DNA of 64,000 nt, from the NCBI GenBank assembly GCA_014860445.1, contig JACZJT010000052.1:124001-188000 (forward strand), written 5' to 3'. Each line of letters starts with the position of its first letter. Position 1 is the stretch's first letter. Origin of the DNA: Burkholderiales bacterium. GTDB taxonomy: Bacteria; Pseudomonadota; Gammaproteobacteria; Burkholderiales; SG8-39. Below the pieces are notes generated by a model, which did not search any database, had not been told where the DNA came from, and was given only the letters and a program-made list of their open reading frames with translations. Made by a program: the position numbers and the translations under genes. Of the stretch, positions 1,674-20,781 are shown piece after piece.

Positions 1674-2363
1674 TCAACTCCCATCAATAAGCGCGACGAG
1701 TTCGTCCAGTTGCGAAATCACGTAGCTGGGCGGGATATCGGCGAAGGCGGTCTCATCACACTCCCCTCCCCGGATGATAGCTACCTGCATGCCGGCGGCC
1801 CGCGCGCCGAGTACGTCGGCTCGACTGTCGCCAACGAACAGCGCGTCGCCGGCCTTGATGCGCCAGTCCGAAAGCACGCGCATTATTCCCTCCGCGTTGG
1901 GCTTCATGTACGTCACCTCGTCGCGGGTTACGACCGGGGATAGACAGCGGGCGAAATCGAAACGGTTTAGCGCTTTGGTGAGCGCATTGCGCCCCACGTT
2001 GCTGACCATGCCCACGCGCGTACCCCCGGCCGCGAGCCGGCAGAGCAGTTCCGCCGCCCCGGGTCGCGGCGTCCATCTGGTCAGGGCGTCGAAATCCCAG
2101 CGGTCGTAGATAGGACACAGGGCCTGGCGCAGTTCTGCCATGCGTCCTTGCTGCGCTAACAAGTCGGCCGCCGCATTCCACATGCCGGCGTAATTGCATT
2201 TGGTGAACTTGTCGCCGCCAAACCCAAGTGCGGCGAAGGCCAGGCGCAGTTCGTCTTCGGCCGGCTTGAGCTGCCATTGGAAATCGACCAAGGTGCCTTC
2301 GAAGTCGAATATGGCCGCCGTATATGCCTGAGCCGTAGTAGGGGATAAGAGATCGGGCCGCAC
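1674..2363 (-). CDS. HAD-superfamily hydrolase, phosphoglycolate-phosphatase-like
   Basis: A 229-residue HAD hydrolase with all four motifs in order: motif I FDFEGTLVD (nucleophile D20), motif II VSN, motif III lysine in TYMKPN, and motif IV GDSRADVLGARAAG. The region between motifs I and II is the helical cap typical of subfamily IA phosphatases. Motif I is odd. The usual second Asp (DxD), which acts as general acid/base, is Glu22 here. The start is GTG with a distant GGAAG. It lies near an operon that handles phosphorylated aromatics, and the Thauera phenylphosphate carboxylase delta subunit is also a HAD protein. However, this protein is larger, carries a full cap and is transcribed away from that operon, so identity with that subunit is not claimed. 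The substrate is unknown. Confidence 0.8.
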   Translation of the reverse strand: MRPDLLSPTTAQAYTAAIFDFEGTLVDFQWQLKPAEDELRLAFAALGFGGDKFTKCNYAGMWNAAADLLAQQGRMAELRQALCPIYDRWDFDALTRWTPRPGAAELLCRLAAGGTRVGMVSNVGRNALTKALNRFDFARCLSPVVTRDEVTYMKPNAEGIMRVLSDWRIKAGDALFVGDSRADVLGARAAGMQVAIIRGGECDETAFADIPPSYVISQLDELVALIDGS

Positions 2364-2849: not shown

Positions 2850-3323
2850 CTAGGAACCACCAGTGCGCAACTCGATTTCCTTGCGCTGGCCGAAGCCTGC
2901 TGAATTGTCGATAAAGTAAAGCCGCTCTGGTACGAGTTTGTACCAGCGCACCTTGGCCAGAGCCTTGATTATCGACGCCGGGGCCCGCCCGAGCTTGCCG
3001 ACAATCGGAAACTTCGCGCCATAGCGGCTGCGGGCCTCTTCTTCCTCCTTGCCGGCAAGCATGGAGACGACGCCCTCCATTTGTACGCCTTTGATTTCCC
3101 TCCAGTCCGCGTAATCCGCTTGAATCGAGGCCGACGCCCGCGGGTTCCCGGCAAGGTTGCGACCGTGCCGGCTGGATGGCGAGGACAGGAAGTAAAACGC
3201 AAACTCTTCATTTGCGTAGAACACCGCTGCCGCCCAGACACCTTCCTCGCCGTGGCTGGCCAGCGTCATTACGTGGTGTTGGCGCAGGTAGCGCTGCGCC
3301 TGTTCGCGTAACCCAGCCTGCAT
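2850..3323 (-). CDS. Pyridoxamine 5'-phosphate oxidase-fold protein (YhbP/UPF0306-like)
   Basis: A 157-residue protein with a split-barrel FMN-binding fold. The start is [13 protein letters not shown], followed by MTLASHGEEGVWAAAVFY, the SSPSSRHGRNL loop and ASASIQADYADWREIKGVQ, a pattern shared with PNPOx-like/YhbP proteins that bind FMN, F420 or heme. The ATG at 3323 overlaps the stop of the sigma-54 activator gene (TGATG), so translation is probably coupled. An upstream in-frame extension is out-of-frame activator sequence and is rejected. Coupling to an aromatic-responsive regulator suggests a redox or flavin-related accessory role in the same pathway, but this is inference. It could equally be a general detoxification protein. 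Confidence 0.75.
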   Translation of the reverse strand: MQAGLREQAQRYLRQHHVMTLASHGEEGVWAAAVFYANEEFAFYFLSSPSSRHGRNLAGNPRASASIQADYADWREIKGVQMEGVVSMLAGKEEEEARSRYGAKFPIVGKLGRAPASIIKALAKVRWYKLVPERLYFIDNSAGFGQRKEIELRTGGS

Positions 3324-5068
3324 CAGGGGTGTAGGTTGAAGGAATCCGTGGTGGCCGCCGCGCTGATGTCCGCGGCTCTCGGCCCGCTCTCGTGCAGGCG
3401 TTTGAGCCGGTAGGCGAGCTGCGGGCGCGTCAGGCCGAGCATCCGGGCCGCGGACGAAAGATTGCCGCGCGCTTTGTCTACAGCCGTTTCGAGCAGCATG
3501 GCCTCGACCTGATCCAGCGTCAGCACCCCATTGAACACCGCGTCGCACAAGTTCTTGCTGCTCTCGGCGCGATTAGCTCCGGGTGCACCGTTGGTATCCA
3601 GGCCGAACTCCCGCGCGTGCTCTTCGGAGCACGGGGAGAACAGGTGGTTTACCTCGATGCGGGTTCCGCTCGGCGTCAGGATCACGCCGCGCTCGACCAT
3701 GTTCTGCAACTCGCGTATGTTGCCCGGCCATTCGTAAGTGAGCAGCGCCCGCTTTGCTTTGTCGGTGAATCCGCGTAGCTTCTTCGCATGTACCACCGAA
3801 TACTTCGCCAGGAAGCGCTTGGCCAGCAGCGCGACGTCAGCTTTGCGTTCCCGCAGCGGCGGGATTTCGATCTGGTAGGCGTTGAGCCGGTAGTACAGGT
3901 CGGATCGCAGCTTGCGTTCCTTGACCAGCTGCTGCAGATCGCAGTTGGTCGCCGCCACCAGGCGCACGTTGATCTTGCGCGTCTTCTGGTCGCCCAGACG
4001 CTCGAGCTCGCCTTCCTGCAGCACGCGCAGCAGTTTGCTCTGGGCCGCGAGCGGGAGGTCACCGATTTCGTCGAGAAACAGCGTGCCGCCGTCTGCCCGC
4101 TCGAAACGGCCCGGGCGGGAAACGAGTGCGCCGGTGTAGGCGCCTTTTTCGACGCCGAATAGTTCCGACTCCACCAGGTTGGGGGGGATGGCGGCGCAGT
4201 TGATGGCGACGAAAGGCGCGTCGCGGCGCGGACCCATGTCGTGCAGGGAGCGCGCGAACAATTCCTTGCCGACACCTGTCTCGCCGAGCAGCAGCACGGT
4301 GATCAAGTTATCCGCAGCCCGCTTGAGCAATTCGTAGGCGGCGCGAAAGTTGGGCGAATCTCCGATCATATCCGCCGGCAGTTTCTCCTTCTCCCCTATG
4401 CTGGAGCGCAACTGCACCACCTGGGTCTGCAAATCGAACAACTGGTCGGCGATCGATTCGCGATTGGAGAAATGCCTGTATTCCGTGGCGTCTTCCCACT
4501 CCTCAATGGGTTTGCCGACGATCCTGCAGTTACCGTGTCCCATGCCCACGCACTCGACTTCTTTGTAAAGGATGGGCCGACCCATGAAAGCCGAGGTGTA
4601 GCCGCAGGCGTAGCCGATCTGGGTCCAGCACACCGGCTCGGTGTGAATGCCATAGTAGTGCCGGTGCCACTGGCCCTCCCAGGAGTTTTCCCACAGGAAC
4701 TCGCCGTAGAATTTTCCGGCGACGCGATCCAGTTCCAGCCTGATCGGCGTAACCTGTACGATGCCCTCCAGGGTGTGCAACTGCGGGCCCGTCATGAATG
4801 CCTCCATGTCGCTGGAGTTCTGCGCACGGATGCGTGCGAGTTCGGCGTCGCGTACGCCAGATGCGTAACCCATGCGCGAAAACAGCCCCTGGGCGCGCTC
4901 CATGCCGAGGGTATCCACGAGTTCTTTGCGCAGGGATGCCTGCGCCTCCGCGTGAACCAGAAGCATGCGGTGTTCGTGCAGCCAGATCTGACCGGTCTCT
5001 GCACAAAAATGTACGCGCGCACGCAGATCGTCGCTATCTGCGGACGTGACGCTACGAAGCTTGACCAT
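3323..5068 (-). CDS. Sigma-54-dependent activator, DmpR/XylR/PoxR type
   Basis: A 581-residue enhancer-binding protein. The N-terminal XylR_N effector domain (about 10-120: [22 protein letters not shown], then DAELAR) and V4R domain (about 135-200, ending [17 protein letters not shown]) match the aromatic-sensing half of DmpR. Next come a linker, an AAA+ domain with Walker [10 protein letters not shown], the sigma-54 contact loop GAYTGA (F to Y variant of GAFTGA), Walker [11 protein letters not shown], and a C-terminal Fis-type helix-turn-helix [25 protein letters not shown] sits 8 nt before the ATG at 5068, and an upstream in-frame ATG (5125) lacks one. It is divergent from the phenylphosphate synthase-like operon, whose -24/-12 promoter it most likely activates when bound to a phenol-like effector. 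Confidence 0.93.
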
Positions 5069-5124
5069 GGTCGAGCCCTCCTCTCTCTCAGTACCGATTG
5101 ACTGCTTCCAAAATGCGCTTTGCA

Positions 5125-5138
5125 TTGATCCAGATCAA
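5125..5138. promoter_or_regulatory. Candidate activator-binding dyad (UAS 1)
   Basis: The inverted repeat TTGATC-CA-GATCAA resembles the TTGATCAA-type half sites bound by XylR/DmpR regulators. It lies 57 bp before the activator gene and about 270 bp upstream of the -24/-12 promoter. It could serve both activation of the operon and autoregulation of the regulator. Binding is inferred only. Confidence 0.5.
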
Positions 5139-5407: not shown

Positions 5408-5422
5408 TGGCACAAGGCTTGC
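5408..5422 (+). promoter_or_regulatory. Sigma-54 (-24/-12) promoter of the phenylphosphate synthase-like operon
   Basis: TGGCAC-AAGGC-TTGC matches the RpoN consensus TGGCAC-N5-TTGC exactly, with the invariant GG and GC separated by 10 bases. Transcription should begin around 5434, leaving a leader of about 70 nt before the ATG at 5506. A perfect 10-bp palindrome GTTGCGCAAC (5392-5401) lies just upstream. Confidence 0.88.
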
Positions 5423-5505
5423 GAAGCAGATGCACATACTGTCGGGCGCAAAGTACGCCTTGGCAATACACGGGAGCATCCACGAATCCGAGGAGGAGAC
5501 ACCAA

Positions 5506-7341
5506 ATGAAATTTCCAGTCCCACACGACATCAAGGCCAAAACTATTCCCGGTACCGAAGGCTGGGAGCGCATGTATCCATACCAATATCAGTTCGTCAC
5601 CGACGATCCGGTGCGCAACCAGTACGAAAAGGAAACATTCTGGTTCTACGACGGCCTGCACTATCCCGAGCCGCTGTATCCCTTCGACACCATCTGGGAC
5701 GAAGCCTGGTTTCTGGCCCTGTCCCAGTTCAACAACCGAATATTCATGGTGCCACCGGTGCGCGGCGTCGACCACCGCATGATCAACGGTTATCCGTACA
5801 TCTCGCCGGTGCCGGTCAAGGACCCGGCGGAAATCGGCAGCCGCGTGCCCAACTTCATGGAGCGCGCAGGCTACTACTACAAGAACTGGGATGCGCTCGA
5901 AGCCAAATGGAAAGTAAAGATGGAAGCCACAATCCGCGAGCTTGAGGCGCTGCAGATTCCGCGACTCGCCGAGATGGAAGACATAGCTGTGGTAACCGAC
6001 GCCATCGGCGAATCGAAAGGCTATCACCTGCTGAAGAACTACGACGATCTAATCAACCTTGGCATCAAGTGCTGGCAATACCACTTCGAGTTTCTCAATC
6101 TCGGTTACGCGGCCTACGTCTTTTTCCTCGACTTTGCGCAGAAGCTGTTCCCGAGCATTCCGCCGCAGCGCGTGACGCAGATGATATCCGGCATTGACGT
6201 GATCATGTATCAGCCGGATGAGGAACTGAAAAAACTCGCCCGGAGAGCGGTTGAACTGGGCGTGGACTCGGTGATCACTTTCAGCCCGGAGTGGACGGTG
6301 GTCGAAGCAGCGCTTAAAAAACTGCCCAAGGGCGTGGAGTGGCTGACCTCGCTCTCCCTGGCGCGCGAGCCCTGGTTCAACATTTCCACCGGCACCGGCT
6401 GGTTTCACCACGACCGTTCGTGGAACGACCAGATGAACGTGCCGCTATCGGGCATCGCCACCTACATCGGGAAGGTGAAACAGGGGATTTCCCTGGACCG
6501 GCCGACCGAAAAAGTGCGCGCGGAGCGCGATCGCATCACCGCCGAATATCGCGACCTGATCGAGAAAGACGAGGATCGCAAGCAGTTCGACGAACTGCTC
6601 GGCTGCGCCAAGACGGTGTTCCCTTACGTGGAAAATCACCTGTTCTACGTCGAGCACTGGTTCCACTCGGTGTTCTGGAACAAGATGCGCGAGGTCGGCG
6701 TCATCATGAAGGAACATGGCGTGATCAAGGAGGTCGAAGACATCTGGCTGCTGCGCCGCGACGAAATCAAGTCGGCGCTATGGGACATCGTCACGGCTTG
6801 GGCGACCGGCGTCACGCCGCGCGGCACCATGACCTGGCCGAAGGAAATCCTCTGGCGCAAGGGCGTGATGCAGAAGTTCAAGGAATGGAGCCCGCCGCCC
6901 GCCATCGGCACTGCGCCGGAAGTGATCCAGGAGCCGTTCACCATCGTGCTCTGGGGGGTGACCAACAAGTCGCTGGCCGACTGGGCGTCGGTGCAGGATG
7001 TCAAGGATCCGAGCAGCATCACCGAGCTGAAGGGCTTTGCCGGCAGTCCCGGCATCGTCGAAGGCAAGGCGCGCGTATGCAGGACGGTGAGCGAGGTCGG
7101 ACAGTTGCAGGAGGGAGAAATTCTGGTGGCGCCGACGACTTCGCCGTCCTGGGCACCGGCTTTTGCCAAGATCGGGGCCTGCGTTACCGATGTCGGCGGG
7201 GTCATGAGCCACGCCGCCATCGTATGCCGCGAGTACGGCATGCCGGCGGTGGTCGGCACCGGGCATGCGACCAAGATCATCAAGACCGGCATGATGATCC
7301 GCGTTGACGGATCGACCGGCGCCATTACCATCGCGCGCTGA
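5506..7341 (+). CDS. ppsA: Phenylphosphate synthase-like subunit 1 (phosphohistidine subunit)
   Basis: A 611-residue (~70 kDa) protein matching in size and architecture protein 1 of Thauera aromatica phenylphosphate synthase, which resembles the central part of PEP synthase. The C-terminal PEP-utiliser mobile domain carries the phosphoryl-accepting histidine (H569) in GGVMSHAAIVCREYGMPAV. The long helical N-terminal part is specific to the aromatic kinase group. AGGAGGAG precedes the ATG by 8 nt, and the open frame upstream is leader. In the known enzyme, ATP phosphorylates this histidine pyro-wise and the phosphoryl group then moves to phenol, yielding phenylphosphate, AMP and phosphate. It is the first gene behind the -24/-12 promoter. 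The name ppsA should not be confused with PEP synthase. The true substrate (phenol or another hydroxyarene) is inferred. Confidence 0.85.
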   Translation: MKFPVPHDIKAKTIPGTEGWERMYPYQYQFVTDDPVRNQYEKETFWFYDGLHYPEPLYPFDTIWDEAWFLALSQFNNRIFMVPPVRGVDHRMINGYPYISPVPVKDPAEIGSRVPNFMERAGYYYKNWDALEAKWKVKMEATIRELEALQIPRLAEMEDIAVVTDAIGESKGYHLLKNYDDLINLGIKCWQYHFEFLNLGYAAYVFFLDFAQKLFPSIPPQRVTQMISGIDVIMYQPDEELKKLARRAVELGVDSVITFSPEWTVVEAALKKLPKGVEWLTSLSLAREPWFNISTGTGWFHHDRSWNDQMNVPLSGIATYIGKVKQGISLDRPTEKVRAERDRITAEYRDLIEKDEDRKQFDELLGCAKTVFPYVENHLFYVEHWFHSVFWNKMREVGVIMKEHGVIKEVEDIWLLRRDEIKSALWDIVTAWATGVTPRGTMTWPKEILWRKGVMQKFKEWSPPPAIGTAPEVIQEPFTIVLWGVTNKSLADWASVQDVKDPSSITELKGFAGSPGIVEGKARVCRTVSEVGQLQEGEILVAPTTSPSWAPAFAKIGACVTDVGGVMSHAAIVCREYGMPAVVGTGHATKIIKTGMMIRVDGSTGAITIAR

Positions 7342-7353
7342 TCGGTGGTGCAG

Positions 7354-8481
<1,128 letters not shown>

Positions 8482-8520
8482 CAAGCGATTTCAACCACCA
8501 CTCGTAAAGACGGAGCCCAC

Positions 8521-10035
8521 ATGAATGCACGTACCGAAGTCAGACCCATCGACGATCTGCGCAGCTACATCTCTGCGCTGGAAGCCAACGGCCAGTTGCA
8601 CCGCATCAAGTCCGAAGTGGACTGGAAGTTCGAGCTAAGTCATGTCGCCAATGTGAACGAGGAGCAGCGCGGCCCGGCGCTGATGTTCGAGAACGTCAAG
8701 GATTACGACATCCCGGTGTTTACCAGCGCGTTCACGACGCCGCAGCGCATGGCGATCTCGCTCGAGCAGGATCCGTCGCTTTCGATGAGCCAACTGTCGA
8801 AGAAGTGGATGCAACTGACCACCCAGAAAATGATCAAGCCGGTGTTCGTCGACAATCCGCCGGTGATGGAAAACGTCATCGAAGGCGACGCAGTCGACAT
8901 CACGAAATTTCCCTCGCCCTGGTTTTATCCGGATGACGGCGGTCCCTTCTTTGTCACCTCCGGTTTTCTGGTGACAAATGACCCGGACACCGGCTGGACC
9001 AACCTCGGCACCTACCGTTCACAGGTGCTGGGCAAGGATATCCTCGGTTCGCAGATCATCAAGGGCAAACACGGCGACATGCACATGAAGAAGTACGCGG
9101 AACGGGGCGAGTTGATGCCCGCGGCCTATGTGGTCGGCTGCGACCCGGTACTGTTCCTCGCCTCTTCGACCATGGTCAGCGCCAACGTGGACGAATACGA
9201 TATTGCCGGCTCGCTGCGCGGCCGCCCGGTGCAGGTGTTCAAGTCCGATCTCACAGGGCTCACCCTGCCGGCCGGCGCCGAGATCATCGCCGAGGGCTTC
9301 ATCGACCCGAATGAACTGATGGAGGAAGGCCCGTTCGGCGAATATACCGGCTATTACTCGGGCAACAAGGGCAAGGACTATCCCAAACCGGTATTGCGCA
9401 TCAAGCGCATCCTCCACCGCAACAAGCCGGTCATGTGGGCCACCACGGTGGGCAAGCCGATCAACGACATCCACATGATCCAGTCGCTCAATCGCACGGC
9501 CACGCTGTGGCACGACCTGGAAACCATGAAGGTTCCCGGTATCCAGAGCGTCTATACGCCGCCCGAGGCCTGCGGGCGCTTCTGGGTGGTGGTGTCGGTG
9601 AAGCAGATGTACCCGGGGCACTCGAACCACGTCGGCAACGCAGTGATTGCGAGTACCACGGGGCATTACGGGGTGAAGGGCGTGATCACAGTCGATCACG
9701 ATATTGCCGCCGACGACTGGGACCGGATCTGGTGGGCGCTAGCCACCCGCTTCGATCCGAAGCGCTGCACGCAGATCATCGACCGCGGCCGCTCGACCCC
9801 GCTCAATCCGGCGACGCCGATGGACGCGCGCGATATCACCAGCCGCGTCATTCTCGACGCCTGCACGCCCTACGAGTGGACCAACAAGCCCAAGGAAATC
9901 TTCATGGACCGCGCCGTGCTGCAGAAGGTGTCCGGCCGCTGGAACGAATACGGCTTCAAGGGCGCCAGCCCGGTGGCCGACATGATCGATCGCCTGACGC
10001 GCCCCGAGGTGAAAAAGACCGCGGGCGGCAAGTAG
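8521..10035 (+). CDS. UbiD-family prenylated-FMN (de)carboxylase, phenylphosphate carboxylase-like
   Basis: A 504-residue UbiD-family enzyme. Residues matching the catalytic set of characterised UbiD/Fdc proteins are present: N161 and R166 in TNLGTYR (N-x4-R), and E269 and E274 in EEGPFGEYTGYY (E-x4-E), so prenylated-FMN chemistry is expected. GGAG precedes the ATG. In Thauera, two UbiD-like subunits with small gamma and delta subunits carboxylate phenylphosphate to 4-hydroxybenzoate. Here only one UbiD protein is encoded, and the flanking UbiX can supply the cofactor. Function as a carboxylase of the phosphorylated product of the preceding kinase is the natural inference, but decarboxylation of an aromatic acid cannot be excluded. 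Confidence 0.88.
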   Translation: MNARTEVRPIDDLRSYISALEANGQLHRIKSEVDWKFELSHVANVNEEQRGPALMFENVKDYDIPVFTSAFTTPQRMAISLEQDPSLSMSQLSKKWMQLTTQKMIKPVFVDNPPVMENVIEGDAVDITKFPSPWFYPDDGGPFFVTSGFLVTNDPDTGWTNLGTYRSQVLGKDILGSQIIKGKHGDMHMKKYAERGELMPAAYVVGCDPVLFLASSTMVSANVDEYDIAGSLRGRPVQVFKSDLTGLTLPAGAEIIAEGFIDPNELMEEGPFGEYTGYYSGNKGKDYPKPVLRIKRILHRNKPVMWATTVGKPINDIHMIQSLNRTATLWHDLETMKVPGIQSVYTPPEACGRFWVVVSVKQMYPGHSNHVGNAVIASTTGHYGVKGVITVDHDIAADDWDRIWWALATRFDPKRCTQIIDRGRSTPLNPATPMDARDITSRVILDACTPYEWTNKPKEIFMDRAVLQKVSGRWNEYGFKGASPVADMIDRLTRPEVKKTAGGK

Positions 10036-10077
10036 TGTGCAGGGGCAGTCCAGCTGGAAGGCGGAGGTAAGCGCAGG

Positions 10078-11337
10078 ATGAGCGTCAAGAAAGGCATCGT
10101 CATCGTCTGCAACCTGGACACCCGCGGCGAGGACATCGTCTTCGTCAAGGATCTCATTGCCGGCCGCGGCCATGATGCCATCCTGCTCGACTTCAGCATG
10201 GAAGAGCCACCGCCCTTTGCCGGCGACATCCGCACCGAGGACGTCGCGGCGCGGGGCGGGCTGCCGATCGAAGTGGTGCGCGAGAAATACCGTTCCGACC
10301 GCGATGCCGCCACCAACAATCAGATCAGGGGCGCAGCGGCGATCGTCGATGAACTGGTCGCACAAGGCCGCGTGCACGGCATCATCGGCATCGGCGGCGG
10401 CACTGCGACGCTGGTCGCGACCTCGATCATGAAGCAGCTGCCCTTCGGCATGCCGAAACTGATGGCTTCGCCGATGGCGGCGCACCCGGCATACATCGAC
10501 AAATACGTAGGCACGCGCGATATCACCATGCACCACACGGTTCTCGATATCGTGAAAATGAACCCCTTGCTGAAGGCCCAGATCATCAACGCGGTCGGCG
10601 CCATCTGCGGCATGGTCGAGATGACTCAGGGGACGAACATCAGCTTCGACAAACCCTGCGTGGCCATCTCTTCGTTCGGCTTCGGCGAAATGGCGGTGCA
10701 GTCGGCCATGGGCATGCTGGAGGAAGCGGGCTTCATCCCCATTGTGTGCCATGCGCAGGGCAAGGGCGACAGGGCGATGGAAGAGATGATCCGCGACGGC
10801 GCCTTCCACGGCGTACTGGACATCTGCATCGGTGGCGTCATGGAACACCTGTTCAAGGGCAACCGCGACCCCGGGCCCGGCCGGTTGATGGCCGCGGTGG
10901 AGACCGGCATCCCCATGGTGCTGGCGCCCTGCGGCCTGGACATCCTGTCCTACGGCGGCCGCGCCGACATGCTGGCACAGACCAGGGACCGGGTGCAGTA
11001 CGTGCAGGATGCGCTGCGCGTGCAGGTCCGCACCACCGCCGACGAGTTGCGCCAGGCCGCGGACGCAATCGCGGAACGGCTGAACCGCGCCAGGGGACCA
11101 TGGACCTTTCTGGTTCCGCTGCGAGGCTGGTCGTCGCTGGACAAGGAAGGCCGTCCCATCTACGACCCGGCCGCCGACGCGGCCTTCGTCGCGCGCCTGC
11201 AGGACAAACTCAGCGACCGCAGCCGGGTCAAGGAGGTGGATCTGCACCTTTATACGCCCGAGTTCGCGCGCGTTGCCGTCGACGAGTTCCTGCGGCTGTA
11301 CAAGTCGGCAAAGGCGCCCGCGCGCGCGGTGGCATGA
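10078..11337 (+). CDS. Tm-1-like ATP-binding domain protein (UPF0261)
   Basis: A 419-residue member of the UPF0261 family, related to the N-terminal ATP-binding domain of tomato Tm-1. Visible hallmarks are the N-terminal IVIVCNLDTRGEDIVFVKD, the glycine-rich IIGIGGGTATLVAT, KLMASPMAAHPAYIDKYVGTRDI, and a C-terminal GPWTFLVPLRGWSSLD. It is soluble, with no signal peptide. GGAGG lies 9 nt before the ATG. It is 42 nt downstream of the UbiD gene and clearly part of the operon. Biochemical function in bacteria is unknown to me. Location between the carboxylase and the third kinase subunit suggests an ATP-dependent step or regulatory role on the aromatic substrate or the UbiD enzyme. This is inference. 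It has no counterpart in the described Thauera phenol operon as I know it. Confidence 0.85.
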   Translation: MSVKKGIVIVCNLDTRGEDIVFVKDLIAGRGHDAILLDFSMEEPPPFAGDIRTEDVAARGGLPIEVVREKYRSDRDAATNNQIRGAAAIVDELVAQGRVHGIIGIGGGTATLVATSIMKQLPFGMPKLMASPMAAHPAYIDKYVGTRDITMHHTVLDIVKMNPLLKAQIINAVGAICGMVEMTQGTNISFDKPCVAISSFGFGEMAVQSAMGMLEEAGFIPIVCHAQGKGDRAMEEMIRDGAFHGVLDICIGGVMEHLFKGNRDPGPGRLMAAVETGIPMVLAPCGLDILSYGGRADMLAQTRDRVQYVQDALRVQVRTTADELRQAADAIAERLNRARGPWTFLVPLRGWSSLDKEGRPIYDPAADAAFVARLQDKLSDRSRVKEVDLHLYTPEFARVAVDEFLRLYKSAKAPARAVA

Positions 11338-11338
11338 G

Positions 11339-11449
11339 ATGAATACCACGGTGCGCGCTTTCCGGCAGACGTTAGCAGCGGCGCTGGCGCATGGCCGCAC
11401 GCCCGCCGGCGAACTACGGCGCACATTTGCAAAGGAGCAGCGGCGATGA
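11339..11449 (+). CDS. Possible 36-residue coupled small ORF
   Basis: ATG one base after the Tm-1-like stop (TGA-G-ATG) opens a 36-codon frame, MNTTVRAFRQTLAAALAHG..., whose TGA overlaps the ATG of the CBS gene by 4 nt (ATGA). The product would be basic and helical. About two thirds of third positions are G or C, lower than I would expect for neighbouring genes, and there is no clear ribosome site. It fills a 108-nt gap exactly, so it may simply be a translational bridge or a chance frame. It is too short to be the ~10-kDa carboxylase gamma subunit. Confidence 0.3.
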   Translation: MNTTVRAFRQTLAAALAHGRTPAGELRRTFAKEQRR

Positions 11450-12129
11450 TCGTGCGCAACTGGATGCAGACCAACCCGAGGACCATTCCCAGTGACATGC
11501 TCGTGTCCGAGGCCAAGCGCCTGCTCAGCGAAAATAACCTGCACGCGCTGCCGGTCGTCGATGACGGTAAGCTTCGCGGCCTTGTGACGCGCGCCAACCT
11601 GCTGCGCATGGGCCACTTCGTTCTGCGAACGCAAAATCCCGACGAATTCAATTTCTTCGTCACCCGCCTCAAGGTCAAGGACGTCATGGTGCGCAACCCC
11701 GCGACCGTGGAGGCCAACGAAACCATGGAGCAATGTCTGTTGAGGGGCCAGGAACTGGGTATCGCGCAATTCCCGGTCGTCGATGGCAAGCAGGTGGTTG
11801 GCGTGATCTCCGCCAACGAGATTTTTCAGCTTGCGGCGCACTGCCTGGGCGCCTGGGAGAGACGCAGCGGCGTGACGCTTGCACCGTTGGAACTCGGTCC
11901 AGGCGTGCTGGGTCGGATCGCCGACGCGGTCGAAAGCGCGGGAGCGGTGCTGCAGGCGCTTTATCCCATCGGTCGGCATGACGACCACGCCGATGCCGGC
12001 TACTTGAAGAAGAAGGTCATCATACGTTTCCACGCCAACGAGTTGCGACAAGTCGTATCTGCGCTGGAAGCCGCGGGATTTGCGGTCATCGAGTCGGTCG
12101 AGACGCATCGACCCGCGCTGGCCGCGTGA
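11446..12129 (+). CDS. ppsC: CBS-domain protein, phenylphosphate synthase-like subunit 3
   Basis: A 227-residue (~25 kDa) protein with two CBS motifs (about 5-60 and 78-130: LHALPVVDDGKLRGLVTRANL and AQFPVVDGKQVVGVISANEI) and a C-terminal ACT-like stretch (KKKVIIRFHANELRQVVSALEAAGFAV). Size and CBS content match protein 3 (24 kDa) of Thauera phenylphosphate synthase, which stimulates the kinase. AAGGAG lies 8 nt before the ATG. CBS pairs usually bind adenine nucleotides, so sensing AMP/ATP, products and substrates of the kinase, is plausible. It is unusual that this subunit is separated from subunits 1 and 2 by the UbiD and Tm-1-like genes. Confidence 0.82.
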   Translation: MIVRNWMQTNPRTIPSDMLVSEAKRLLSENNLHALPVVDDGKLRGLVTRANLLRMGHFVLRTQNPDEFNFFVTRLKVKDVMVRNPATVEANETMEQCLLRGQELGIAQFPVVDGKQVVGVISANEIFQLAAHCLGAWERRSGVTLAPLELGPGVLGRIADAVESAGAVLQALYPIGRHDDHADAGYLKKKVIIRFHANELRQVVSALEAAGFAVIESVETHRPALAA

Positions 12130-12163
12130 CGACGGGTTGGAAAACAACAACAGGAGCGAAGCT

Positions 12164-12769
12164 ATGAGTCTGCCGTTGGTGGTTGCAATCACTGGTGCCT
12201 CAGGAGTGATCTACGGCGTCGAGTTGCTGCGCGCACTGAAGACACTGGGACAGGAAACGCACCTGATTCTGAGCGAAGCCGCCGGCCTGAACCTCGCCAT
12301 CGAGACCGATTTCGACCTGGACTACGTCAAAAGCCTGGCGAATGCGGTCTACAAGAACAAGGACGTCGGCGCGACCGTTGCCAGCGGCTCGTTCCGTACA
12401 CGAGGCATGATCGTCGCACCGTGCTCTGTGAAGACACTCTCGGCCATCGCCAATTCATTCAACCATAATCTGATCGTGCGGGCCGCCGACGTGACACTGA
12501 AGGAGCGCAGGCCGCTGGTGCTCATGGTGCGCGAGACGCCCTTGCACAAAGGACACCTCGATCTTATGACTCGGGCAGCCGACTACGGCGCTGTGATCCT
12601 TCCGCCGATGCCCGCCTTTTACCACAAGCCGGAATCGATCATGGATATCATCCACCAGAGCATCGGCAAAGCGCTGGACCAGGTTGGGGTCGAGCATACG
12701 CTGTTCAAACGTTGGGCGGGACACGACAAGAAAGAACCGGGCAAGGAGCCGCTGCGCGCCGTCGATTGA
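12164..12769 (+). CDS. ubiX: UbiX-family flavin prenyltransferase
   Basis: A 201-residue flavoprotein that links a dimethylallyl group to FMN to make the prenylated FMN needed by UbiD enzymes. Typical motifs are VAITGASGVIYGVELL at the N-terminus, APCSVKTLSAIANSFNHNLIVRAADVTLKERRPLVLMVRETP, and LPPMPAFYHKP. CAGGAG precedes the ATG, and the in-frame upstream extension overlaps the CBS gene and has no family similarity. As last gene of the operon it most likely matures the UbiD protein encoded upstream. A dedicated UbiX gene is also found at the end of known phenol-carboxylation clusters. Confidence 0.92.
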   Translation: MSLPLVVAITGASGVIYGVELLRALKTLGQETHLILSEAAGLNLAIETDFDLDYVKSLANAVYKNKDVGATVASGSFRTRGMIVAPCSVKTLSAIANSFNHNLIVRAADVTLKERRPLVLMVRETPLHKGHLDLMTRAADYGAVILPPMPAFYHKPESIMDIIHQSIGKALDQVGVEHTLFKRWAGHDKKEPGKEPLRAVD

Positions 12770-13290: not shown

Positions 13291-14139
13291 ATGGCCAAAG
13301 GACGTTGCCTGTGCGGTGCGCTGAACTACGAATTGGACGGACCGTTCGTTGCGATGATGCACTGCCATTGCTCGATGTGCCGCAAGCAACACGGCACCGG
13401 TTTCGCCACCTTCGCCATCGGGCCGATTGCAGGATTTCGCTGGATTTCAGGAGAAGACCGGCTGGTTCGCTACCAGTCCTCGCCCAAGGGGACGCGCAGT
13501 TTCTGCAGCATCTGCGGCTCGGCGGGTCCGGCGGCGATGCCCGAATACGGCGTTGCCGCCGCACCGGCGGCGAGCCTCTCAGGAGAACTCGACATCAAGC
13601 CGCAGAGCCATATATTCGTCGGCTCAAAAGCGCCCTGGTACACCATCACCGACACGCTGCCGCTGCACGACGCCTATCCCCCCGGGGTCGGCGCTGAGGG
13701 CGTGAATCGCCCGGCGGTGACGCCGCGCCCGGGGATCACCGAGGGCAGTTGCCTGTGCGGAGACATTGCCTACGAAATTACCGGTACGCCTGCGCGAATG
13801 ATGAACTGCCACTGCAGCCGCTGCCGCCTCGGCCGCGCTGCGGCACATGCCTCGAATGTGTTCTACAAGCTCGACCAGTTCCGCTGGGTGCGCGGCGCTG
13901 AGAAAGTGACCGAATACAAAGTACCCGATGCAAAATTTCACGCTGTGGCGTTCTGCTCGCGTTGCGGCTCCAAGGTGCCCAGGCCATCGCCCGAGCGGGG
14001 TATCGTCGTGGTCCCGGCCGGATCGCTGGACACCGACCCGGGCATACGCGCGCAAGCGCATATTTTTACCGCGGACAAAGCGCCCTGGTTCGACATCACC
14101 GGGGCGACGCCGCAGTTTGCGGCGATGCCGCCGGCCTAG
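13291..14139 (+). CDS. Tandem GFA/CENP-V domain protein
   Basis: A 282-residue protein made of two glutathione-dependent formaldehyde-activating (GFA)-type zinc domains. Each repeat starts with a CLCG motif (GRCLCGALNYEL; GSCLCGDIAYEI), followed by CHCSMCRKQHG or CHCSRCRLGRA and a later CSICGS or CSRCGS, and ends with a conserved HIFVGSKAPWY/HIFTADKAPWF. GGGAGAGGA precedes the ATG, and an upstream in-frame ATG is less likely. Family members bind zinc, and most have no proven enzymatic role. The internal duplication is evident by eye. The stop overlaps that of convergent dnaQ by 4 nt. A functional link to the aromatic operon is not evident. Confidence 0.85.
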   Translation: MAKGRCLCGALNYELDGPFVAMMHCHCSMCRKQHGTGFATFAIGPIAGFRWISGEDRLVRYQSSPKGTRSFCSICGSAGPAAMPEYGVAAAPAASLSGELDIKPQSHIFVGSKAPWYTITDTLPLHDAYPPGVGAEGVNRPAVTPRPGITEGSCLCGDIAYEITGTPARMMNCHCSRCRLGRAAAHASNVFYKLDQFRWVRGAEKVTEYKVPDAKFHAVAFCSRCGSKVPRPSPERGIVVVPAGSLDTDPGIRAQAHIFTADKAPWFDITGATPQFAAMPPA

Positions 14140-14858
14140 GGGCTGGCTGGCTCGCCATCGAGGGCGAGCCAGACGCACTTGCCCTTGCTTTGCTCCTGTA
14201 TGCCTTGCAGCACCGCGGCATGCTCGGCCAGCTCTTCTGGGCTGGCGGAAAGCACCGTCAGCGCAGGGCGTTCGACGGGTGCGCCGGACACCGCATCCGT
14301 CGCCGCCGGTTCAGGCTCCAGTTCCATCACCAGACTCTCCTGACCGCGGGTCATTGCGAGATAGACCTCGGCCAGCAGTTCGGCATCGAGCAGCGCGCCG
14401 TGCAGCGTGCGGTGGGTATTGTTCACGCCGTAGCGCTCGCACAATGCATCGAGTGAATTCTTCTTGCCCGGATGCAGCTCTTTCGCCAGCTTGAGCGTGT
14501 CCTTCACGCCGGCGCAGTGCTGCGCCAGCGGCGGCAATTTCGCCAGCGCCAGTTCCTGCTCCAGAAACTCGACGTCGAACGGTGCGTTGTGAATGACCAG
14601 TTCCGCGTCGCGGATGTATTCGATGAACTCTGCGGCGATCTCGCGAAACCGGGGCTTGTCCAGCAGGAATTCGTCGCTGATGCCGTGAACTTTCAACGCC
14701 CCCTCTTCGCTCGCGCGTTCGGGATTGAGATAGTGATGGAAGTGGTTTCCTGTGGGACGACGGTTGAGCAGTTCGAGGCAGCCGATTTCGATCACGCGGT
14801 CCCCGAGCTTGGCGTTGAGGCCGGTGGTCTCTGTATCCAGTACGATCTGGCGCGTCAT
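14136..14858 (-). CDS. dnaQ: DNA polymerase III epsilon subunit (3'-5' proofreading exonuclease)
   Basis: A 240-residue DEDDh exonuclease that proofreads in the replicative polymerase. Exo I VLDTETTG, Exo II HNAPFDVEFLEQEL and Exo III HGALLDAELLAEVYL are all present with catalytic D, E, D and H/D residues. The C-terminal ~50 residues form the tail that contacts the polymerase subunit. The ATG overlaps the stop of the outer-membrane channel gene (ATGA), so it is the last gene of the RND cassette transcript unless an internal promoter exists. In enterobacteria dnaQ lies beside rnhA. Here the efflux genes separate them. Confidence 0.95.
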   Translation of the reverse strand: MTRQIVLDTETTGLNAKLGDRVIEIGCLELLNRRPTGNHFHHYLNPERASEEGALKVHGISDEFLLDKPRFREIAAEFIEYIRDAELVIHNAPFDVEFLEQELALAKLPPLAQHCAGVKDTLKLAKELHPGKKNSLDALCERYGVNNTHRTLHGALLDAELLAEVYLAMTRGQESLVMELEPEPAATDAVSGAPVERPALTVLSASPEELAEHAAVLQGIQEQSKGKCVWLALDGEPASP

Positions 14859-16303
14859 TTGCTCTCTGTGCTCCGAGAAGGGGTGATTGAATCCTGCATG
14901 ACTTGCGCAGACCAGCCGCCGCCCAGGGACTTCATCAGGTCCACGCTGGCAACCAGGCGGGATTGCCGGTTGCGCAGGAACGCCAGGTCGGCGTCGTTGG
15001 CCGTGCGCTGTGCATCCAGCACTTCGAGATAAGCAGAATAGCCGGATTCATAGCGCAGCTTCGCGAGGCGCAATGCATTGCCTGCGGCTTTCGCGCGGAG
15101 ATGCAATTCCCGTTCCGAGGCCGCGGTCTGCTGCAAGCCGGTGAGCGCGTCGGCGACCTCGCGAAACGCCGTTTCCACGACCTTTTGGTAATTCCCCACC
15201 GAAACACGCTGGCGCGCCTCTGCGGCTTGCGTGCGCGCAGCATAACGCCCTGCATCGAATATCGGCAGTGCCAGGCCGAAGCCCAAGGACCAGATACGCG
15301 CACCATTCGAAAGCACGGTGGAAAGCGCGGCGCTCTGGCCGCCGTAGCTGGAGGTAAGCGAGACCGTGGGGAACATCGCCGCCCGCGCAATGCCGATCTG
15401 CGCATTGGCCGCAACCAGTTGCTGCTCGGCCTGCAGGATGTCCGGGCGGCGCTGCAATAGCGTGGATGGCAAACCTGCCGGCGGCTGGGGCGGGAGCGGC
15501 AGGGTGAGCAGTTCTCCGGGCGCGAGCCGCATATTCAGGTTGCCGCTGAGGACTCCGAGCTGATGCTCGGCCAGCGCACGTTGCCGCTGCAGATCGGCAA
15601 GCTGGGCGGCGGCGTCGGCCCTGGCGGCCTCGGCCTGACTGGATTCCATATCGGATGCGATACCCCCGCGCACCCGGCTGTGCACCAGTTCCAGAGACTG
15701 CCGGCGCGCATCCAGGGTTACACGCATCAAGCTGATCTGCGCGTCCAGCGAACGCAGCGAGAAATAGGCCTGCGTAGTCAAGCCGGCAACCGACAGGCTG
15801 ACCACCTCCTTGGCATAGCGCGAGCTCAGCGCGAGCGCGCGCGTTGCCTCGATCGCGCGGCGCAGCTTCCCCCAGAAATCGATCTCGAAGGAGGTGCCCA
15901 GCGAAAGGCGAACGTCGTTTCGCACCAGCGGTACGGTGGACGGTATCGGCGTCGCAGTCCTTGAACTGATGCGCGAACGATTCGGCGCCGCGCTCAGACC
16001 GACTTCCGGCAGGAATGCAGCACCCGCTTCGCGCAGATTGGCGTCCGCCTCCTCGATGCGCGCCACCGCGACGCGCAGATCGGCGTTGTGCTCGAGCGCT
16101 CCGGCGACGAGTTCATCGAGCCTGCTATCTCCATACAGCGTCCACCATTGCGCATGAACGCCCTCGGTGCCGCCGGTCTCAACGGCAGTATCGGGATAGG
16201 CACCCGGCAGTTCGATTGCCGGACGCCGGTAATCGGGTCCGACCGCGGCGCAAGCGCCCAACAGCAGCACGACAATCGGAATGATCGCGCAGCGCCGCTT
16301 CAC
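14855..16303 (-). CDS. RND outer-membrane channel lipoprotein, OprM/NodT type
   Basis: A 482-residue outer-membrane factor forming the trimeric exit duct of a tripartite efflux pump. An N-terminal lipoprotein signal ends in the lipobox LLGAC, followed by AVGPDYRRP, a classic start for OprM-like proteins. Two repeats of the OEP domain follow (QWWTLYGDSRLDELVAGAL... and RRPDILQAEQQLVAANAQIGIARA). The GTG start overlaps the stop of the pump gene (GTGA). An open frame extends further upstream only as pump-gene shadow. The C-terminus runs past the final helix to TESK. Confidence 0.92.
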   Translation of the reverse strand: MKRRCAIIPIVVLLLGACAAVGPDYRRPAIELPGAYPDTAVETGGTEGVHAQWWTLYGDSRLDELVAGALEHNADLRVAVARIEEADANLREAGAAFLPEVGLSAAPNRSRISSRTATPIPSTVPLVRNDVRLSLGTSFEIDFWGKLRRAIEATRALALSSRYAKEVVSLSVAGLTTQAYFSLRSLDAQISLMRVTLDARRQSLELVHSRVRGGIASDMESSQAEAARADAAAQLADLQRQRALAEHQLGVLSGNLNMRLAPGELLTLPLPPQPPAGLPSTLLQRRPDILQAEQQLVAANAQIGIARAAMFPTVSLTSSYGGQSAALSTVLSNGARIWSLGFGLALPIFDAGRYAARTQAAEARQRVSVGNYQKVVETAFREVADALTGLQQTAASERELHLRAKAAGNALRLAKLRYESGYSAYLEVLDAQRTANDADLAFLRNRQSRLVASVDLMKSLGGGWSAQVMQDSITPSRSTESK

Positions 16304-19300
16304 GAGGCCGTCTCCTGCGCCGATTCCGCGATGTCGTGTTTCGCCTTGCGCCGCCCGAGCACGGTGAAGAACAGAGGAACGAACAGCGTGGCAACGAAGG
16401 TCGCGACCAGCATGCCGCCGAACACACCCGTGCCCATGGAGCGGCGCGCCGCCGCGCCCGCGCCGGTCGCGAGTGCGAGCGGCAGGACCCCGAACATGAA
16501 AGCGAGCGAGGTCATGACAATCGGACGGAAGCGCTGGCGTGCCGCCTCGATTGCAGCGGTCGTCACGTCCATGCCGGCATCCACGTTCTGCGTCGCGAAT
16601 TCCACGATCAGGATCGCATTCTTCGCCGCCAGGCCGATCAGCGTGACCAGGCCTATCTGGAAGTAGATGTCGTTGCTCATGCCCAGCGCAAGCACGGCGA
16701 GCAAGGCGCCAAGCACCGCGAATGGCACGGCAAGCAGCACGGCGACCGGGAGCGACCAACGCTCGTATTGCGCCGCAAGGATCAGGAAAACCATCACCAG
16801 CGCAAAGATGAACGCGATGGTCGAGGCCTGGCCCGCGCGTTTCTCCTGAAAGGCCTGGCCGGTCCATGCGAGGTAATAGCCCTGCGGCAGGGCCTCGGTG
16901 GCAACCTCCTCAACCGCGCGGATGGCGTCGCCCGAACTGATGCCGGGAGCCGATCCGCCCAGGACTTTCGCCGCAATGAAGCCGTTGAAGCGTGCCAACT
17001 GGTCGGGCCCGACGATGCCTTTGGTTTTGATCAGTGACTTCACCGGCACCATGTCGCCCGCCACCGAGCGCACATAGACATTGCCCAGGTCCTCGGGCCG
17101 CGAGCGGTAGGGCGCGTCGGCCTGGATCTGCACGCGGTAGGTGCGGCCAAACTTATTGAAGTCGTTGACGTACAGCGCGCCCATCGTGCTTTGCAGCGCG
17201 TCGAACACGTCGCTCAGCGGGACGCCGAGCGCGAGCGCTCTTTCGCGATCGACTTCGACGAACAGCTGCGGCACACTCGGCCGGTAGAAGGTGTTGACCC
17301 CGGCCAGTTCCGGGCGCTTGCGCAGCGCTTCAACAAACCGCTGCACCGCGGCCTCCAGCATCTTTGCGTCCCCGCCCCCGCGGCTCTGAACATAGGCTTC
17401 GAATCCACCCGCCGTGCCCAGGCCGCGGATCGGCGGTGCATTGAACGCGAATACCAGACCATCCCGGGAAGCGGCGCCTTGCGTCGACATGTACTTCACC
17501 ATGTCCGCCGCGGACTCCTTGCGCTGGTCCCAGGGCTTGAGGGCGACGAACATGGTCGCGGCGCTGGTCTTGTTGCCCCCGCCGATCAGGTCGAAGCCAT
17601 TCACCACGAAGACGTGCTCGACCGAAGGGTGTTTCACCATGGTTTGCTGAACCGACGCGCCCAGCGCCCCGGTGCGCGCCAGCGACGCGCCGTCCGGCAT
17701 CACGACTGCACCGTAAAAATAGCCGGAGTCTTCGACCGGCACCAGACTCCCCGGTATGACCCGGAGCAGTCCGATGCAGGCCGCGATCACCAGCGCAAAT
17801 GCGATCAAGCTGAGCCACATGTGCGCAATCGCGAGTCGCACGCCCTTGATGTACACCGAGGTGATCCACGAAAAAGCGACGTTGAATGGATGGAAGAAAT
17901 GCGGCTCCTTGTGCGAGGGCTTGAGCAGGATTGCGCACAGGGCCGGTGTCAGCGTGAGCGCAAGGACACCGGAGATGGTCACCGCGGTGGCGACCGTGAC
18001 GGCGAACTGCTTGTACAACTGGCCCGCGAGGCCGCCGAGAAAAGCCACCGGCACGAACACTGCCAGCAGCACCAGTTCGATCGCGATAATCGCCGTGGTT
18101 ACCTCGGTCATGGATTCGAACGCCGCCTGCCGCGGCGTAAGATCGCGCTCGGCCATCAGGCGCTCGACGTTCTCCAGCACCACGATCGCGTCGTCGACGA
18201 CGATGCCGGTCGCGAGCACGATTGCGAAGAGCGTCAGCGTGTTGATGGAAAAACCGAACAGGAACAGGCCGGCGAACGCGCCGATCAGCGACACCGGCAC
18301 CGCGATGAACGGGATCAGCGCGGCGCGCCAACTCTGCAGAAACACGAACACCACCACCAGCACCAGCGCCGCGGCGATGAACAGCGTGTGGATGACCTCC
18401 TCGATCGAGGCATCGACCACGCGCGTCGTATCGTAGGGAAAAATGTAGCTGATACCCTGCGGAAAGGGTTTCGACAGTTCGGTCATGGCGGCGCGAACGG
18501 AATTCGCGACCTGGAGCGCGTTGGCGCCCGATTGCAGGAAGATCGCGATCCCCATGGTCGGCTTTCCGTCCACGGTGGTGAACTGGTCGTAGTTCTGCGC
18601 GCCGAGTTCGATGCGCGCAATGTCCTTGATGCGCAGCACGCCGCCGGGCCCGCTGGCGCGCAGGATGATGTTGCCGAACTCTTCCGGTTCCACCAGCCGC
18701 CCGCGCGCCGTCACCGTATACACCAGCGGCTGCCCTGGGAGCGCCGGGTCCTGGCCGATCTTGCCGGCCGCGTACTGGTTGTTCTGCACACGGATGGCGC
18801 TGGCGACATCGGTGGTGGTGATGCCCAGCTGCGCCATGCGGTCGGGGCGCAGCCACACGCGCATCGAGTAGTCGCGCGCGCCGAAGATATAGGCGTCGGC
18901 CACCCCCGGCACGCGCTTGAGCTGGTCGAGCACGTTGACGGTGAGATAGTTGCTCAGATAGAGCGTGTCGTAGCGCGCGTCGCTGGAGGTCGTCGCCACC
19001 ACCATCAGGATATCGCGGGTGCGTTTTTGCACCACCACCCCGCCGCGGCGCACTTCCTCGGGCAGCCGCGGCAGCGCGATCTGGACGCGATTGTTGACCT
19101 GGATGGTGGCGTTGTTGATGTCGGTGCCGACTTCGAAGGTGACGGTGATGTTGAGCGTCCCATTCGAGGATGCGGTGGAATCGTAATAGATCAGGTTTTC
19201 GACGCCCGAGAGCTGCTCTTCGATCGGGGCAGCGACCGTCTTCGCCAGCGTTTCGGCGCTTGCGCCCGGATAGGCCGCGGTGATGGCAACGGTGGGCGGT

Positions 19301-19419: not shown

Positions 19420-19432
19420 GGCGTTCAGCGCC

Positions 19433-20641: not shown

Positions 20642-20781
20642 TTCACGCAAGAAGATCAGCTGCATCTGCATGGTAGGAAAAGTCCAGTGAAAAAGGGGAA
20701 CGGCCGTGAACTCGCGGATTATATCGAATTGACCGGGCAGCAACCTTCGGCGACCGCCGCGTAAATCGCTAGTTCTACCTT

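What the first reader, a model, noticed from the sequence alone, without database searches (positions are those of the whole stretch)
5408..12769. Variant phenylphosphate synthase/carboxylase operon with one UbiD and a Tm-1-like protein
Three genes match in size and motifs the three phenylphosphate synthase subunits of Thauera aromatica (70-kDa His subunit, 40-kDa ATP subunit, 24-kDa CBS protein). The carboxylase part, however, is one UbiD gene plus UbiX, instead of two UbiD-like subunits with gamma and delta proteins. A UPF0261/Tm-1-like ATP-binding protein is inserted, and the CBS subunit is moved to the far side. This suggests either a minimal, possibly homomeric, phosphoaryl carboxylase that uses the Tm-1-like protein as accessory, or a pathway for another substrate (cresol, catechol, naphthol, aniline-like or ketone-like).
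Basis: partly seen in the sequence, partly recalled or inferred. Interest (0 to 1): 0.85.

Follow-up and report, generated by a model that had tools for sequence, protein, structure and literature searches.

The report
One-UbiD phenol carboxylation operon
This window holds a recurring variant of the bacterial genes for breaking down phenol without oxygen, in which a single carboxylase and an unexplained ATP-binding-type protein stand where the textbook version has a four-part carboxylase.

Summary
In detail: a sigma-54 site, ppsA, ppsB, one ubiD, a UPF0261/Tm-1-like gene, the CBS gene ppsC and ubiX, with a divergent PheR-like activator. It is not a one-off: of 80 loci with a close PpsA, 25 carry the textbook ppcB-D-A-C module (19 of them through ubiX), 34 carry this order as far as the UPF0261 gene (28 through ubiX), and 5 have a CoA ligase instead of it. 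In the window's genome no PpcC was found, no close PpcD, and only one other UbiD, the ubiquinone one. Kinase and regulator match textbook phenol operons, and on a quick PpsA tree the carboxylase type changes at least six times. So the substrate is most likely phenol and this is an alternative phenylphosphate carboxylase. New lead: the nearest solved relative of the Tm-1-like protein is a UPF0261 protein with acetovanillone bound, probably (my inference) the single-component aryl kinase MarK. Three further close paralogues sit beside PpsA/PpsB-like kinases without UbiD. I infer that it moves phosphate to or from phenol; which way is untested. The ligase clade lacks it, so it is not indispensable everywhere. 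Verdict: real, recurring, new variant of a known kind.

The parts
3323..5125 (-). PheR/MobR-like one-component sigma-54 activator (XylR_N, V4R, AAA, Fis HTH)
   Evidence: Pfam and NCBIfam (below the MobR 'exception' cut-off); 68-91% identical regulators in the other operons
5408..5422 (+). sigma-54-type (-24/-12) promoter TGGCACAAGGCTTGC
   Evidence: only match in the window, 0.25 expected, 23 of 100 shuffles have one too; such a site lies within 350 bp of ppsA in 37 of 85 loci against 35 of 4250 random stretches
5506..7341 (+). ppsA, phenylphosphate synthase subunit with Ser568-His569
   Evidence: PF00391; His in VMSHAAIV; 82-98% identity in 80 loci
7345..8481 (+). ppsB, ATP-binding subunit (start GTG 7345 or ATG 7354)
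   Evidence: PF01326 384 bits
8521..10035 (+). ubiD, single PpcB-like prFMN carboxylase
   Evidence: TIGR02724 561 bits, cut-off 469; own clade beside PpcB; Arg and EGPFGE residues kept
10078..11337 (+). UPF0261/Tm-1-like protein, inferred aryl-phosphoryl-transfer protein
   Evidence: PF06792 + PF23189; related to 9mpy, UPF0261 with acetovanillone
11446..12129 (+). ppsC, CBS-domain third subunit of the synthase
   Evidence: two CBS stretches; 58-71% to the CBS subunit of textbook operons
12164..12769 (+). ubiX, flavin prenyltransferase
   Evidence: TIGR00421 and NF004685 above cut-off

Best explanation
This is a 'type II' anaerobic phenol operon. Phenol (via the PheR-like activator and a sigma-54 promoter) switches on PpsA, PpsB and PpsC, which make phenylphosphate from ATP. 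A single PpcB-like UbiD, with prFMN made by UbiX and no alpha, gamma or delta partner, carboxylates the ring in the para position to 4-hydroxybenzoate, which goes on through an HCR-like enzyme and benzoyl-CoA reductase. The UPF0261 protein is a phenol-binding, ATP-dependent phosphoryl-transfer protein of the MarK kind. It either phosphorylates phenol in parallel or, taking over the job of the delta subunit, takes the phosphate off phenylphosphate so that phenolate reaches UbiD. Shown here: gene content, absence of the other subunits, exchange of carboxylase types on the PpsA tree, linkage to kinases. Inferred: substrate, homomeric UbiD, and the role and direction of the UPF0261 protein.
For: Kinase and regulator resemble those of named Aromatoleum and Azoarcus operons. 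Carboxylase type changes 7 times on the PpsA tree, 6 forced by well-supported branches. In 51 genomes: PpcC in 20 of 20 type I and 0 of 31 others; PpcD at 77% or more in 20 of 20 and 0 of 31; type II-clade UbiD in 0 of 20 and 31 of 31. Close UPF0261 in 25 of 25 type II genomes and 0 of 20 type I, and in the window's genome. Three of three other close UPF0261 paralogues (two genomes) next to PpsA/PpsB-like genes. Nearest solved relative binds acetovanillone; a single-component aryl kinase, MarK, starts acetovanillone breakdown in that organism.
Against: Five loci (IIb, one clade on the PpsA tree) have the same UbiD but no UPF0261 gene after it; the four of these whose genomes were searched have none anywhere, though completeness of these MAGs is not known. 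Type I PpsA works without it. In two paralogue operons HD-domain genes stand nearby, so a phosphatase role would be redundant there. Distance correlations did not tie it to UbiD (0.21) or PpsA (0.28). MarK = Saro_1862 is my inference; that paper was not readable. All three HCR-like subunits score below the HCR cut-offs. Three of the 34 type II loci have no ubiX hit although the DNA goes on (L013, L047, L054). No activity is shown.
Confidence: 0.55

Rival explanations
1. The UPF0261 protein is a subunit or stimulator of the PpsAB kinase itself (like PpsC), not part of the carboxylase side.
For: Three of three further close paralogues (two genomes) sit with PpsA/PpsB-like genes and no UbiD on the fetched DNA of 5-20 kb; its highest distance correlations are with the CBS gene, 0.58, and the regulator, 0.57.
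Against: Type I kinases up to 90% identical do without it; apart from IIb it follows the carboxylase type, not the PpsA lineage.
Confidence: 0.22
2. The UPF0261 protein is a maturation or prFMN-loading helper of UbiD, in the role LpdD plays for other UbiDs.
For: It lies between ubiD and ubiX in type II operons; UbiD maturation helpers exist (LpdD, PMC10865409, passages).
Against: Paralogues occur without UbiD nearby; a family member was solved with a phenolic ligand; IIb UbiD does without it.
Confidence: 0.08
3. The operon acts on another hydroxyarene (cresol, catechol, naphthol, aniline, aryl ketone).
For: The whole carboxylase differs from the textbook one; UbiD and kinase specificity cannot be read from sequence with certainty.
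Against: PpsA 81-90% to textbook phenol operons but about 45% to kinases in ketone- or cresol-type clusters; HpeH, CreH and PpsA are about 45% identical to each other (PMC12167813, passage); regulator 68-79% to those of textbook operons; exchanges on the PpsA tree.
Confidence: 0.1
4. A separate phosphatase does the delta step and the UPF0261 protein is marginal: the HAD gene at 1674-2363(-), or the metallophosphoesterase seen downstream in other loci.
For: HAD gene present; metallophosphoesterase beyond ubiX in 10 of 29 type II, 3 of 3 IIb and 4 of 16 type I loci with at least 1.5 kb of room.
Against: The HAD gene is found in only two loci besides the window (L003, L103); the metallophosphoesterase was not found in the window or in the own-genome stretches held and also occurs in type I; the whole genome was not searched for it.
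Confidence: 0.15

Closest known systems
Phenylphosphate synthase/carboxylase ppsABC-ppcBDAC of Thauera, Aromatoleum, Azoarcus (L076, L080, L085)
   Same: PpsA, PpsB, PpsC, regulator, UbiX; UbiD is on the PpcB side of the family
   Different: no PpcA, PpcC, PpcD or third UbiD; UPF0261 gene added; CBS gene moved; UbiD only 52-55% to PpcB and in its own clade
Beta-only phenol clusters of Geobacter metallireducens and Desulfatiglans anilini (PMC6114531, PMC7500099, passages)
   Same: kinase genes with a single ppc-beta in the cluster, no gamma
   Different: D. anilini has an alpha homologue elsewhere and no PpsC in the cluster; here the genome has no second aromatic UbiD. Whether those clusters hold UPF0261 was not testable here
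UPF0261 protein Saro_1862 (PDB 9mpy, acetovanillone bound) and the single-component aryl kinase MarK
   Same: UPF0261 family; phenolic ligand; aryl-phosphate pathway
   Different: about 30% identity; MarK stands in for a dikinase, here the protein stands beside one; MarK = Saro_1862 is inferred
Hpe/Acv and Cre dikinase pathways (HpeHI, AcvAB, CreHI)
   Same: homologous two-component dikinase, about 45%
   Different: biotin carboxylase (Hpe/Acv) or, in the Cre-like plasmid cluster L088, P450 instead of UbiD; dedicated phosphatase HpeD in Hpe

Membership tests
Phenylphosphate synthase PpsABC | PpsA with phospho-accepting His in the mobile domain | tested here: met
   PF00391, Ser568-His569; Ser before the His as stated for PpsA in PMC12167813 (passage)
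Phenylphosphate synthase PpsABC | PpsB ATP-binding protein | tested here: met
   PF01326
Phenylphosphate synthase PpsABC | PpsC two-CBS protein in the operon | tested here: met
Phenylphosphate synthase PpsABC | ATP-dependent phenol phosphorylation | not testable with these tools
   needs enzyme assay
Phenylphosphate carboxylase PpcABCD | beta subunit (UbiD) | tested here: inconclusive
   561 bits over the 469 cut-off, but PpcB of Aromatoleum anaerobium scores 1117 and a UbiD with no kinase or ppc gene nearby scores 500; separate clade
Phenylphosphate carboxylase PpcABCD | alpha subunit (second UbiD) | tested here: not met
   two UbiD-family genes in the genome (PF01977); the other is ubiquinone UbiD (885 bits, cut-off 788) beside ubiA. 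No search with PpcA itself was made
Phenylphosphate carboxylase PpcABCD | gamma subunit | tested here: not met
   0 hits in the genome; 20 of 20 type I genomes positive
Phenylphosphate carboxylase PpcABCD | delta (HAD) subunit | tested here: not met
   one 45% hit, KdsC-like; 20 of 20 type I genomes have 77% or more
UPF0261 with TIM-barrel (TBST) partner | partner gene PF09370 | tested here: not met
   none in the window's genome; 3 of 51 genomes, each beside a generic UPF0261
MarK-type aryl kinase | UPF0261 fold | tested here: met
   Pfam; 9mpy E 5e-49 by sequence; best Foldseek hit, TM 0.54, rmsd 11.7
MarK-type aryl kinase | phosphorylates a phenol with ATP as a single component | not testable with these tools
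   needs assay; MarK paper not held

The most novel reading that the evidence does not exclude
The UPF0261 protein is an aryl kinase run in reverse: it takes the phosphate of phenylphosphate (made by the PpsABC dikinase) onto ADP, or hands phenolate directly to UbiD, replacing the HAD delta subunit. Two unrelated aryl kinases and one UbiD would then form a leaner phenylphosphate carboxylase that recovers part of the activation energy, and UPF0261, long uncharacterised, would be a family of aryl-phosphate enzymes.
Probability: 0.15. Interest if true: 0.85.

Novelty: new variant of a known kind. Interest (0 to 1): 0.6.

Why it matters
Which phenylphosphate carboxylase subunits are needed, and what removes the phosphate, has stayed hard to test because full activity in Thauera needed all four (PMC7500099, passage). 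Here alpha, gamma and delta are absent under nearly the same kinase, and the two forms have been exchanged repeatedly, so a minimal system can be tested directly. The IIb clade, which also lacks the UPF0261 gene, is a natural control. If UPF0261 proteins are aryl kinases, a large uncharacterised family (the tomato Tm-1 resistance domain belongs to it) gains a chemical function. Annotation also benefits: the TIGR02724 'PpcB' model passes at least one UbiD (L095) with no phenol genes around it.

Tried and rejected
Rejected: canonical ppcABCD elsewhere in the genome. Rejected as less likely: aryl-ketone kinase system. Rejected: vestigial Nudix gene in the 11338-11445 spacer; the 36-aa ORF there did not look like the Nudix protein by eye, no alignment was run. 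Rejected as a general answer: the HAD gene as delta substitute (window plus two loci). Inconclusive: distance correlations. Led nowhere: single-sequence fold of the UPF0261 protein (pLDDT 39); literature on UPF0261 with phenol.

Limits: the genome-contig scan keeps the best 80 of 184 matches, so more divergent architectures (Geobacter, Desulfatiglans) were not seen. Many loci are MAGs. The PpsA tree is a quick LG+G4 tree of 79 rows; the 8 loci cut before the carboxylase were dropped, L052 and L109 are the same sequence, and an exchange on it may mean a moved kinase as well as a moved carboxylase. The UbiD tree used a chosen subset and carries long-branch warnings. PF06050 is not specific to benzoyl-CoA reductase (it also rings in the E. 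coli control).
Full report
OBSERVATION. The operon is real and as described: divergent sigma-54 activator 3323-5125(-), sigma-54-type site 5408-5422, ppsA 5506-7341, ppsB 7345-8481, ubiD 8521-10035, UPF0261 10078-11337, CBS/ppsC 11446-12129, ubiX 12164-12769. The site is the only exact TGGCAC-N5-TTGC in the window, but 23 of 100 shuffles also have one. Across loci it is meaningful: within 350 bp of ppsA in 37 of 85, against 35 of 4250 random stretches; 3 loci were too short.

HOW COMMON. A genome-contig scan with PpsA found 184 relatives and kept 80 (L029 and L051 are one assembly). By synteny these 80 are: 25 type I (ppsA-ppsB-CBS-ppcB-ppcD-ppcA-ppcC-UbiD-UbiX; 19 through ubiX, 6 ending earlier); 34 type II, as far as the UPF0261 gene; 5 IIb (an acyl-CoA ligase directly after ubiD; L036 ends inside the ligase); 1 split and duplicated type II (L059/L094); 7 cut off inside a type II ubiD; 8 cut off earlier. 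Of the 34, 28 run through ubiX, 3 end too early, and 3 (L013, L047, L054) have no ubiX hit although the DNA goes on; 5 have a Nudix gene before CBS (L014, L033, L051, L054, L057); in L004 the UPF0261 match is in two pieces. Type I order is confirmed by the annotated plasmid of Azoarcus sp. KH32C (ppcB, ppcD, ppcA, ppcG). Where the record names a class, type II hosts are mostly Betaproteobacteria, with one MAG each named as Xanthobacteraceae and Acetobacteraceae and two as Myxococcia. Within the window's family 14 of 98 genomes have the close UPF0261 gene, own genome included. In even samples of the phylum and class it is 2 of 398 and 1 of 369, own included. I fetched 10 of the 13 other family hits: 9 of 10 have at least part of the type II ubiD on the same contig, the tenth contig begins inside the UPF0261 gene, and one (L109) is the same sequence as L052. 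The other 3 have the coordinates of loci already held (L014, L015, L057).

WHOLE-GENOME TEST. In 50 genomes (20 type I, 25 type II, 4 IIb, L059), plus the window's own: close UPF0261 in 25 of 25 type II and in L059, 0 of 20 type I, 0 of 4 IIb (7 type I genomes have remote 26-31% copies), and 1 in the window's genome. PpcD at 77% or more in 20 of 20 type I and 0 of 31 others; of these 31, 26 have a 34-47% hit, KdsC-like by my label, and 5 none. PpcC 20 of 20 and 0 of 31. UbiD of the type II clade (78% or more) 0 of 20 and 31 of 31. The window's genome (99.5% complete) has two UbiDs; the other is ubiquinone UbiD (885 bits, cut-off 788) beside ubiA. So the aromatic UbiD has no PpcA, PpcC or PpcD partner that these searches could find.

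SAME KINASE, EXCHANGED CARBOXYLASE. PpsA of type I loci is 82-90% identical to the window's, and the Azoarcus plasmid copy is 81%. On a quick tree of 79 PpsA proteins (26 type I, 53 type II/IIb/L059/cut) the label changes 7 times, 6 of them forced by starred branches; shuffles average 22. The tree does not say which type is older, nor whether kinase or carboxylase moved. The UbiDs of the two types form two clades (100* and 99*; 49 rows, a chosen subset, long-branch warnings). The window's UbiD keeps the Arg and the EGPFGE glutamates (alignment; their catalytic role is recalled). TIGR02724 gives it 561 bits; PpcB of Aromatoleum anaerobium gets 1117, and a UbiD with no kinase or ppc gene in its 20-kb stretch (L095) gets 500, over the 469 cut-off, so the 'beta subunit' name is weak evidence.

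SUBSTRATE. The regulator is 68-79% identical to those of type I operons; PheR of A. aromaticum EbN1 answers to phenol and not to p-cresol or p-ethylphenol (PMC10715001, passages). PpsA-like genes beside biotin carboxylase or P450/HD/SDR/ALDH genes on plasmids are only about 45% identical; these resemble Hpe and Cre systems (PMC9618137 passages; PMC12167813 passages). The genome has bcrCBAD and had, all above NCBI cut-offs, and an HCR-like trio whose medium subunit keeps five cysteines aligned with those of 4-hydroxybenzoyl-CoA reductase 1rm6_B. Against this, all three subunits score below the HCR cut-offs (810/995, 283/405, 185/258 bits) and the small one fits a glyceraldehyde dehydrogenase model slightly better (192 bits). 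HcrA is over its cut-off in 32 of 51 genomes, the window's not among them. It also has PobA (670 bits, cut-off 539), so an oxic exit is possible too. PF06050 is found in 49 of 51 genomes; the two misses are type II (L056, L081), and the family is not specific to benzoyl-CoA reductase.

THE UPF0261 PROTEIN. It has both UPF0261 domains. In bacteria 491 of 504 genomes with a TIM-barrel (TBST) gene also have a UPF0261 gene, and the two co-evolve (PMC5028733, passages). Here PF09370 occurs in 3 of 51 genomes, each time beside a generic UPF0261, and not in the window's genome. A 22-sequence AlphaFold model (pLDDT 77) has as best match 9mpy, 'Saro_1862, a UPF0261 domain protein from Novosphingobium aromaticivorans with bound acetovanillone' (30% identity, TM 0.54; sequence E 5e-49). 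[quoted passage not shown] aromaticivorans (PMC13101465, introduction read; reference seen; the MarK paper is not held). That Saro_1862 is MarK is my inference. The three other close paralogues found (63-71%, from two genomes) are all next to PpsA/PpsB-like genes with no UbiD on the fetched DNA. In two of them (L093, L097) the order is Etf, Fe-S protein, PpsA', PpsB', SDR, UPF0261, HD, ALDH-like, HD, with one extra ORF in L097 (HD by Pfam for one ORF of L093 and two of L097; the other names recognised by eye). So the protein goes with aryl-kinase-like genes, and in the phenol setting with the type II UbiD, IIb excepted.

MECHANISM. Most likely: PpsABC makes phenylphosphate; UbiD with prFMN carboxylates phenolate; the UPF0261 protein binds phenol/phenylphosphate and moves the phosphoryl group. 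In Thauera the delta subunit frees phenolate and the alpha-beta-gamma part carboxylates it (as summarised in PMC7500099 and PMC6114531, passages). Without delta something must do this, and the UPF0261 protein is the best-placed candidate. Against an essential role: the IIb clade. A metallophosphoesterase lies beyond ubiX in 10 of 29 type II, 3 of 3 IIb and 4 of 16 type I loci with at least 1.5 kb of room, and could be another answer. Distance correlations among 27 type II operons were inconclusive (UPF0261 with CBS 0.58, regulator 0.57, PpsA 0.28, UbiD 0.21; UbiD correlates poorly with every gene).

NOVELTY. A single ppc-beta in a phenol cluster is known from Geobacter metallireducens and Desulfatiglans anilini; the latter has an alpha homologue elsewhere. 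I found no description of the UPF0261 operon in the open-access library: searches (listings only, plus the passages cited). Most subscription papers are missing from it. I call it a new variant of a known kind.

Noticed in passing
window 1674-2363 (-): HAD-family hydrolase (PF13419) between a CoA ligase and the regulator, motif I DFEGT; a possible phosphatase, found in only two other loci held (L003, L103).
   Followed up: partly
window 1-1337 (-), gene continues left of the window: 554-aa acyl-CoA synthetase (PRK08162 988 bits); its part in L083 is 44% to the ligase that stands in the UPF0261 place of IIb operons; possible 4-hydroxybenzoate-CoA ligase.
   Followed up: partly
L093 102-12647, L097 7433-19902: Operon with Etf, Fe-S protein, PpsA'/PpsB'-like kinase, SDR, UPF0261, HD, ALDH-like, HD in two different genomes: perhaps an oxygen-independent cresol-type pathway through phosphorylation.
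   Followed up: partly
L039 8216-9103 and 21 other loci: Calcineurin-like metallophosphoesterase near type I, II and IIb phenol operons.
   Followed up: partly
L014 15774-16319; L081 15875-16498: Two different Nudix hydrolases recur in phenol operons: one between UPF0261 and CBS, one (NUD2) in 13 type I and 6 type II loci.
   Followed up: partly
L094 3352-19984 (genome of L059): Two kinase sets (ppsAB 87/79% with CBS, and ppsAB 69/61% with ubiD-ubiX) around one UPF0261 gene and two activators.
   Followed up: no
L095 8578-10041, L096 8723-10186: UbiDs with no kinase or ppc genes on the 20-kb stretch, 63% and 53% to the window's, next to what look (by eye) like tripartite-transporter binding proteins; L095 passes the NCBI 'PpcB' cut-off, L096 just misses it.
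   Followed up: no
L080 17559-18902: Textbook operons carry a third UbiD (448 aa) of unknown role before ubiX; no counterpart was seen in type II operons.
   Followed up: no
window 11339-11449: 36-aa ORF overlapping the CBS start between the UPF0261 and CBS genes; L007 and others have a shorter gap there, five loci a Nudix gene.
   Followed up: no
window 14136-21193: DnaQ and RND efflux genes (NodT-type outer membrane protein, MFP adaptor) downstream; ordinary.
   Followed up: no
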